This document shows, piece by piece, positions 14,511 to 15,948 of a stretch of DNA of 64,000 nt. This stretch comes from Planctomycetales bacterium 10988 (GTDB taxonomy: Bacteria; Planctomycetota; Planctomycetia; Pirellulales; Pb10988): assembly GCA_009664345.1 (NCBI GenBank), contig CP043547.1, positions 2,322,709 to 2,386,708 on the forward strand, in the 5' to 3' direction. A program made the translations under genes and the position numbers. The notes below the pieces were generated by a model. The model worked only from the letters and a program-made list of their open reading frames with translations. It was not told the origin of the DNA and ran no database searches. Position 1 is the stretch's first letter. Every line of letters starts with the position of its first letter.

Positions 14511-15599
14511 ATGACCGTCGAAAAATTGCAAAGCTATCGGAAAAAAGACCTCGCACAGATGGCTCGGAGCCAGGGGGTTAAGGGTTGGCATGCGATGCGT
14601 AAGGATGAATTGATCGACGTACTTGCCGAAGAAGAGAAGCCCACCCCCAAGCGAACCCGATCTACAAAGAGTTCCAAGAAAATAAGCACATCTTCCACCG
14701 CGACTGCCACGAAGGCTCCTCCCAAATCGAAAAAGTCGTCTTCGACAGCTCCCAAGCAAACCCGCAAGCAAGCCAAAGAATTGATGGAAATTCGTGAACG
14801 TCGGGAGCGTAGCAAAAATTTGGCCTTCGGTGCCAAACCCGATCAACAAGACAATATGAGCCAAGATCAACTGAGTTTGGCGGTATGCGATCCCTTCTGG
14901 TTGCAAGCACGCTGGAATCTCTCGGCTTGTGGCGTTCGTCGGGCGGAAGTTGCTTTGGCTCAAGAATGGCATAACGCCAAGCCAGTTCTTCGCTTATATG
15001 AAATCACCTCGCAAGGTTCAACTAATCACGCCGGCGAACTTTTGAAAACAATCGTCATTCACGGTGGGGTCAAAACTTGGTACCTGGAAGTCAAAGACCC
15101 CCCGAAAACCTACCGTGTCGAGATCGGCTACCTGACCGCTGCCGGCAAATTCTTTATGCTGGCCCGCAGCAATCGCGTCAGTACTCCTCGTGATGGAGCC
15201 GGGGAAGTTGTCAATGAACAACCTTCCAAAGAGCCGGCCATGACCGCTCAGCCGAAACCAAGTGAAGTCTCCGAACGGATTAATCGCACTTTGACCGCTC
15301 ATCGCTTCCTGCCGCTTGGCATCAATGGCCAACGCGAACGCGATTTCCAATTCCAACTCGATGCCAAATTGATTGTGTCCGGTTCGACGCAGCCTGGCTC
15401 AACGGTTTCTCTGCAAAATGATTGTGTTGATCTTCGTCCGGATGGCAGTTTTACGGTGACGTTCCCCTTGGAAGATGGCCGTCAAATCATTCCAGCCGTC
15501 GCTTGCAGTCCCGATGGCGTTGAAAAACGAACGATCGTCTTGGCCGTCGAGCGTAATACCAAAGTGATGGAACCGATTATCCGCGAACATCACGGCTAG
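14511..15599 (+). CDS. DUF4912-domain protein with an N-terminal Rho_N-like motif
   Basis: 362 residues. Residues ~4-42 resemble a Rho N-terminal/SAP-type helical motif (YRKKDLAQMARSQGVKGW then MRKDELIDVL). A basic Ser/Lys/Thr-rich linker follows. Residues ~120-225 match DUF4912 (LAVCDPFWLQARWNLS, then RVEIGYLTAAGKFFMLARSN), a domain found widely in planctomycetes and cyanobacteria with no fixed function. A beta-rich region (~265-355) completes the protein. The basic linker and Rho_N-like motif suggest nucleic acid binding, but this is inference. Confidence 0.85.
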   Translation: MTVEKLQSYRKKDLAQMARSQGVKGWHAMRKDELIDVLAEEEKPTPKRTRSTKSSKKISTSSTATATKAPPKSKKSSSTAPKQTRKQAKELMEIRERRERSKNLAFGAKPDQQDNMSQDQLSLAVCDPFWLQARWNLSACGVRRAEVALAQEWHNAKPVLRLYEITSQGSTNHAGELLKTIVIHGGVKTWYLEVKDPPKTYRVEIGYLTAAGKFFMLARSNRVSTPRDGAGEVVNEQPSKEPAMTAQPKPSEVSERINRTLTAHRFLPLGINGQRERDFQFQLDAKLIVSGSTQPGSTVSLQNDCVDLRPDGSFTVTFPLEDGRQIIPAVACSPDGVEKRTIVLAVERNTKVMEPIIREHHG

Positions 15600-15625
15600 G
15601 GGAAACGTAAAGAACATCTTGGCCA

Positions 15626-15654
15626 TTGCTCGTTTGAAGCGTTTTAGCTACAAA
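15626..15654 (+). promoter_or_regulatory. Promoter of the 6S-like RNA
   Basis: TTGCTC at 15626-15631 and TACAAA at 15649-15654 are separated by 17 bases. The predicted start of transcription is near 15661, immediately before the closing stem of the RNA described below. Each hexamer matches the consensus at four positions. Confidence 0.5.
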
Positions 15655-15660
15655 TGATGA

Positions 15661-15876
15661 TTCGGATTCCTCTGCCATGTTCGTGTTGCCGATGTTAATT
15701 GCTGGTGAGCCGATAACAGGAACCCGTTGGGTCCCGAACCTTTTGGCTTTGTGAGGATCTCTCCTTCCTTTCACGGGAAGGACTGGAACTTCACTCCCTA
15801 ATTGGTGAGGCACCCCTATTTGAACTGCGGGCTCCCCATGAGCGCATCGCCACGGCATTGCGGCGGAGGAATCTTT
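15661..15876 (+). ncRNA. Structured RNA resembling 6S RNA
   Basis: About 210 bases with no open frame fold as one long irregular rod. The ends pair over 12 bp (GATTCCTCTGCC at 15665-15676 with GGCGGAGGAATC at 15862-15873), GGTGAGCC (15704-15711) pairs with GGCTCCCC (15830-15837), and a 7-bp apical hairpin forms from TCCTTCC and GGAAGGA around 15763-15783. A largely unpaired middle lies between. This closing stem, bubble and terminal stem layout, length and TGAGCCGATA element fit 6S RNA, which binds the sigma-70 holoenzyme. Upstream lies a promoter, downstream a terminator. An unrelated regulatory RNA remains possible. Confidence 0.55.
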
Positions 15877-15893
15877 TCATCTTTAAAACTGAC

Positions 15894-15926
15894 AATCCAT
15901 GCCCTCCTTGGCATGGATTTTTCTTT
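15894..15926 (+). terminator. Rho-independent terminator
   Basis: AATCCATGCC and GGCATGGATT pair perfectly around the loop CTCCTT and are followed by TTTCTTTT on the plus strand. It ends either the DUF4912 transcript or, more likely, the structured RNA that finishes just before it. Confidence 0.88.
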
Positions 15927-15948
15927 TGTCAGCTTCTCAAATTCACTT

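What the first reader, a model, noticed from the sequence alone, without database searches (positions are those of the whole stretch)
15626..15926. Likely 6S RNA between the DUF4912 and SMP-30 genes
A 17-bp-spaced promoter, a roughly 210-base rod closed by a 12-bp stem and capped by a 7-bp hairpin, an open middle, and a perfect terminator lie in a gap without open frames. That is the architecture of 6S RNA, which mimics an open promoter and sequesters RNA polymerase. Planctomycete 6S RNAs are little studied.
Basis: partly seen in the sequence, partly recalled or inferred. Interest (0 to 1): 0.7.

Follow-up and report, generated by a model that had tools for sequence, protein, structure and literature searches.

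The report
6S RNA gene in a planctomycete
The stretch encodes a 6S RNA, a small RNA that most likely imitates an open promoter to park RNA polymerase; it is a known kind of molecule, but one that published searches reported missing from close relatives of this bacterium.

Summary
Window 15664-15874 (+) folds into a rod of about 210 nt (z about -5.9) that is homologous to 6S RNA. On its own it scores only 25.3 bits with Rfam's 6S model (E 0.0027, cut-off 46.4). A covariance model built from 22 relatives without the window scores it 113 bits (E 7e-26), the only such site in the genome. Orthologues in related genomes pass Rfam's 6S cut-off, and the planctomycete model in turn finds E. coli ssrS. 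Covariation is strong: 24 of 51 pairs change on both sides in 23 sequences. A promoter with exactly 17-bp spacing is conserved in 42 of 46 loci (0.7 expected). The pRNA start motif GAGCCGAU matches E. coli (U44 = window U15714). Two mutually exclusive helices on one strand, P2 and the 'central bubble collapse helix', both covary, which suggests the Bacillus/Aquifex type of pRNA-driven release. The same model finds a 6S RNA in Thermogutta terrifontis, whose genome paper reported none. The RNA is patchy in the order: 27 of 149 genomes of one family (probably Pirellulaceae) have it. Expression, polymerase binding and pRNA synthesis are inferred from homology, not shown. New member of a known kind.

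The parts
15626..15654 (+). sigma-70-type promoter: TTGCTC, 17-bp spacer, TACAAA
   Evidence: Read; same element with exactly 17-bp spacing upstream of 42/46 homologues, 0.7 expected
15661..15927 (+). probable primary transcript (start inferred 7 nt after the -10; end inferred from the terminator)
   Evidence: inference from promoter and terminator
15664..15874 (+). 6S RNA rod
   Evidence: fold z -5.9; RF00013 25.3 bits at 15666-15873; 113 bits with a model built without the window, 15667-15870
15664..15687 (+). 5' strand of the closing stem, with the AUGUUCG motif shared with E. coli 6S
15851..15874 (+). 3' strand of the closing stem, including the near-invariant CCACGGCAUUGCGG block
15707..15711 (+). 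5' strand of helix P2 (GAGCC); partner GGCUC 15830-15834
   Evidence: 98.7% of cells paired, 4 of 5 pairs with changes on both sides across 47 sequences
15712..15728 (+). 5' strand of the central bubble; U15714 is the position equivalent to E. coli U44, the pRNA start
   Evidence: U44 as start from PMC8876501
15695..15714 (-). predicted pRNA, AUCGGCUCACCAGC... (template is the RNA itself, read back from U15714)
   Evidence: inference from alignment with E. coli
15723..15727 (+). [quoted passage not shown] partner 15827-15831 (5 bp in the window, up to 7 in relatives)
   Evidence: 89.7% of cells paired, 5 of 7 pairs with changes on both sides
15816..15829 (+). 3' strand of the central bubble
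15729..15815 (+). apical arm with 8-bp end hairpin 15762-15782; diverged in sequence from relatives but re-paired
   Evidence: 7 pairs in the whole rod differ on both sides from the commonest pair of the relatives, 5 of them in this arm
15894..15927 (+). intrinsic terminator, 10-bp stem then T-rich tail
14511..15599 (+). upstream gene: Rho_N-like + DUF4912 protein; the same neighbour in relatives
   Evidence: Pfam; tblastn of related 6S loci

Best explanation
The locus is a single-copy gene for 6S RNA with its own sigma-70-type promoter and intrinsic terminator. The transcript folds into a rod with an open centre that imitates a melted promoter, binds the housekeeping holoenzyme and keeps it from DNA promoters, probably when growth slows. 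On return of nucleotides the polymerase would copy the RNA from U15714 into a short pRNA (AUCGGCUCACC...), which unwinds helix P2. The freed 3' strand of P2 would then pair with the distal 5' bubble strand (central bubble collapse helix) and eject the polymerase. Shown here: homology, fold, covariation of both alternative helices, promoter conservation, conserved pRNA start motif. Inferred from the family: expression, holoenzyme binding, pRNA synthesis, release.
For: RF00013 at 15666-15873, 25.3 bits, E 0.0027 in a lax scan of 441 bases. Orthologues found by plain BLAST of this gap are loci that RF00013 finds independently, above its cut-off in several: 57.0, 48.1, 47.4 and 46.9 bits, and 57.9 and 66.1 in more distant planctomycetes. 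A model trained without the window scores it 113 bits, E 6.8e-26, next best 10.6; one hit in 6.65 Mb. The planctomycete model finds E. coli ssrS at 32.9 bits, E 1e-8 in 1 kb. Covariation: 24/51 pairs on an unfitted MAFFT alignment of 23; 36/51 pairs and 94.8% of cells paired in 47 sequences, 0/500 shuffles, about 45% when slid. Promoter in 42/46 loci. GAGCCGAU and U44 match. Competing P2 and collapse helices both covary. DUF4912 is the conserved upstream neighbour in many relatives.
Against: The window sequence itself is below Rfam's curated cut-off and is among the more divergent of its order; 6 of the 51 consensus pairs are not standard pairs in it. Many relatives lack a detectable copy, so the function is dispensable in the order. 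No transcript, binding or pRNA data were available.
Confidence: 0.93

Rival explanations
1. An Ms1-like RNA: a 6S-shaped RNA that binds the core polymerase rather than the holoenzyme and makes no pRNA.
For: Ms1 is structurally related to 6S (PMC9130861); the binding partner cannot be read from sequence.
Against: The locus is homologous in sequence to 6S (AUGUUCG, GAGCCGAU) and orthologues pass the 6S model. The position equivalent to E. coli's pRNA start is conserved, and P2 and the collapse helix are kept as alternatives, which is best explained if pRNA is made. Ms1 is known from Actinobacteria.
Confidence: 0.03
2. A decayed 6S gene: descended from 6S RNA but no longer functional in this species.
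For: Divergent apical arm; loss of the block GGCCGCGUGUAUAGCCG...CGGAUCACACAACC that most relatives share; many relatives have lost the gene.
Against: Seven pairs changed on both sides and stayed paired; promoter and terminator are intact; fold z -5.9; the closing stem and bubble are nearly consensus.
Confidence: 0.03
3. A cis-acting leader, trailer or other structured RNA unrelated to 6S (for instance an element of the DUF4912 transcript).
For: It lies 60 bp behind the DUF4912 gene on the same strand, and this synteny is conserved.
Against: It has its own conserved promoter and terminator; it also occurs away from DUF4912 in other genomes (for example T. terrifontis); it matches 6S and no other Rfam family plausibly.
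Confidence: 0.01

Closest known systems
6S RNA (Rfam RF00013), E. coli ssrS
   Same: Rod of about 200 nt, closing stem with AUGUUCG, P2 GAGCC followed by U44-type start, open central bubble, apical arm; reciprocal covariance-model hits
   Different: Window scores below the RF00013 cut-off; neighbour is DUF4912, not fau (ygfA) and zapA as in E. coli; no long 3'-bubble hairpin in the window; a covarying collapse helix instead
[quoted passage not shown]
   Different: B. subtilis 6S-1 also has a 3'-bubble hairpin in the free state; the window does not show one
Ms1 RNA of Actinobacteria
   Same: 6S-like rod
   Different: Binds core polymerase, differs in synteny (PMC9130861)

Membership tests
6S RNA (RF00013) | Match to the family covariance model at its curated cut-off | tested here: inconclusive
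   Window 25.3 bits against a cut-off of 46.4, E 0.0027; orthologues pass: 66.1, 57.9, 57.0, 48.1, 47.4, 46.9 bits. The cut-off is a detection threshold, not a property of the molecule
6S RNA (RF00013) | Homology to accepted 6S RNAs, tested in both directions | tested here: met
   Window 113 bits with a model of relatives that excludes it; broader planctomycete model finds E. coli ssrS 32.9 bits
6S RNA (RF00013) | Rod with closing stem, central bubble and apical arm, about 200 nt | tested here: met
6S RNA (RF00013) | Covariation in the arms | tested here: met
6S RNA (RF00013) | Conserved pRNA start site in the 5' bubble strand | tested here: met
   GAGCCGAU with U15714 = E. coli U44; synthesis of pRNA itself not testable
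6S RNA (RF00013) | Independent small-RNA gene (promoter and terminator) | tested here: met
6S RNA (RF00013) | Binds the primary-sigma holoenzyme and is released by pRNA synthesis | not testable with these tools
   needs pull-down and in vitro transcription
6S RNA (RF00013) | Abundant, growth-phase-dependent transcript | not testable with these tools
   no RNA-seq data held
Ms1 RNA | Binds core polymerase; actinobacterial synteny | not testable with these tools
   binding not testable; neighbours here are DUF4912 and SMP-30 genes

The most novel reading that the evidence does not exclude
Planctomycetes carry a distinct 6S branch that standard models miss. It is built around an evolutionarily conserved two-state switch (P2 against the bubble-collapse helix), is present in lineages reported to lack 6S such as Thermogutta terrifontis, and is often linked to a conserved Rho_N-DUF4912 protein that may act with it.
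Probability: 0.4. Interest if true: 0.55.

Novelty: new member of a known kind. Interest (0 to 1): 0.42.

Why it matters
A published genome analysis states that 6S RNA was not found in Thermogutta terrifontis and, citing Wehner et al. 2014, that it was absent from Pirellula staleyi and Rhodopirellula baltica (PMC5673643). Here a 6S RNA is documented in an order-mate, in many other planctomycetes and, by prediction, in T. terrifontis itself, where Rfam's model finds nothing even at E 1. So 'absence' was partly a detection limit, and the real losses can now be mapped. Joint covariation of two competing helices supplies evolutionary evidence for the collapse-helix release step described from probing in Bacillus and Aquifex.

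Tried and rejected
Rfam at gathering threshold on the whole window: no hits, so the lax scan and the relatives were needed. RF00013 on the own genome: no hit, a sensitivity limit. The notion that genomes without a hit hide a divergent 6S behind DUF4912: their downstream gaps were searched and read and hold no such RNA. Antisense ORF 15577-15858 as the real feature: rejected. Naming the window's organism by a genome contigs pattern scan: its record was not returned, but 14 planctomycete MAGs were, all confirmed at 149-187 bits, while 17 chance pattern matches in other groups gave no model hit. Wehner et al. 2014 is not held, so its claims are cited second-hand.

Full report
OBSERVATION. The 301-base stretch folds at -117.3 kcal/mol against -85.3 for shuffles, z -5.86, with 0 of 100 shuffles as stable. 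The reverse strand folds about as well (z -6.0), as expected of a long rod; the strand is settled by the promoter, the terminator and homology.

HOMOLOGY. Rfam at its cut-off finds nothing in the window. A lax scan of 441 bases gives RF00013 6S over its full length at 15666-15873, 25.3 bits, E 0.0027; no other family is plausible. BLAST of the gap hits 22 of 57 genomes searched, the window's own among them and the rest from the same order, mainly in the closing stem and the bubble flanks. RF00013 searched independently in those genomes lands on the same loci (G008 57 bits, G040 48.1, G001 45.3, G051 40, G018 32.3). In a joint scan L050, L059, L031, L032, L012 and L017 pass the curated cut-off. 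A model from 22 relatives that excludes the window scores the window 113 bits, E 6.8e-26; the next-best place in 64 kb has 10.6 bits. The genome has one such locus. In the other direction, the planctomycete model finds E. coli ssrS (L079:385-564) with 32.9 bits, E 1e-8.

STRUCTURE. On an unfitted MAFFT alignment of 23 sequences, RNAalifold gives 51 pairs, 24 of them with changes on both sides. On 47 sequences aligned by the model, 94.8% of cells pair, 36 of 51 pairs have changes on both sides, no shuffle of 500 reaches any measure, and sliding the partner drops pairing to 42-47% (this alignment leans towards the model). The window itself keeps 45 of 51 pairs; seven of these differ on both sides from the commonest pair of the relatives, so selection on pairing is seen in this sequence too. 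Coding is not supported.

PROMOTER. TTGNNN-N17-TANNNT (the window's TACAAA allowed) lies upstream of 42 of 46 loci from three kinship levels (order, class, phylum), with exactly 17 bp of spacing; 16 or 18 bp give 1 and 0 loci, and shuffles give 0.7. The distance from the -10 to the rod varies from 5 to 90 nt, so many members probably start as longer precursors.

MECHANISM. 6S RNAs hold the holoenzyme by their open centre and are released when the polymerase copies a pRNA from them (PMC8876501, PMC9130861). E. coli starts at U44 in GAGCCGAU; the window has the identical octamer, with U at 15714, and would give AUCGGCUCACCAGC against AUCGGCUCAGGGGA. [quoted passage not shown] Here P2 (98.7% of cells paired, 4 of 5 pairs covarying) and the collapse helix (89.7% paired, 5 of 7 pairs covarying) share the strand GCGGGCUC and both covary; for example, where the shared C becomes U, both partners change from G to A in several sequences. 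Four collapse pairs were part of the model used for aligning; the three that compete with P2 were not. Sequences were not corrected for relatedness, so this is support, not proof. The window can form 5 of the 7 collapse pairs.

DISTRIBUTION. In the family of G014 (f15), which is probably Pirellulaceae (inference, not named by a tool), 27 of 149 genomes have it. Most genomes without it still carry DUF4912, followed there by other genes or a short terminator. It holds a 6S candidate at 768877-769079 (-), 54.4 bits, E 3e-10 for the genome, not used in training, with TTGCCG-17-TAGGAT upstream and a T-run behind. RF00013 does not see it at E 1; its fold z is a modest -2.45. The genome paper reported no 6S RNA.

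VERDICT. An ordinary kind of molecule in a place where it was thought absent.

Noticed in passing
G016:C1:768877-769079 (-), loci L072 and L142: A 6S RNA candidate in Thermogutta terrifontis R1 (identified by its exact contig length), which the genome paper reports as lacking 6S RNA.
   Followed up: partly
window 14511-15599; L010, L012, L020, L022, L035, L045, L047, L048, L053, L057, L073: A Rho_N-like + DUF4912 protein gene lies upstream of the 6S gene in relatives of several families, sometimes with another gene between; a candidate RNA-binding partner of unknown function.
   Followed up: partly
A1 columns 87-105 and 148-163; window 15744-15799: Most relatives share a strongly conserved apical block, GGCCGCGUGUAUAGCCG ... 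CGGAUCACACAACC, in the arm away from the closing stem; the window has lost its sequence but keeps pairs there. It may be a protein contact.
   Followed up: no
L085, L086, L091, L093, L096, L099 and similar: Genomes of family f15 without 6S keep DUF4912 with, just behind it, a short hairpin terminator and an unrelated gene: looks like a clean loss (or never a gain) of the 6S gene.
   Followed up: partly
L009, L012, L014, L016, L051, L066, L072 downstream ends: In many relatives a run of T follows the closing stem directly, so the closing stem of 6S may itself serve as the terminator; the window has a separate terminator.
   Followed up: no
L006, L007, L070, L072 upstream ends: The conserved promoter lies 50-90 nt before the rod in several relatives, implying long 5' leaders that may need processing.
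   Followed up: no
G285:C12:1007729-1007907 and G285:C1:274204-274382: One genome of another class appears to carry two 6S copies (or is contaminated, 4%).
   Followed up: no
L061, L062, L065, L067, L068: In family f53 (same phylum, outside the class) the 3' bubble strand could form a small hairpin (CCGUAAAAUACGG), as in Bacillus 6S-1; the collapse helix is weaker there.
   Followed up: no
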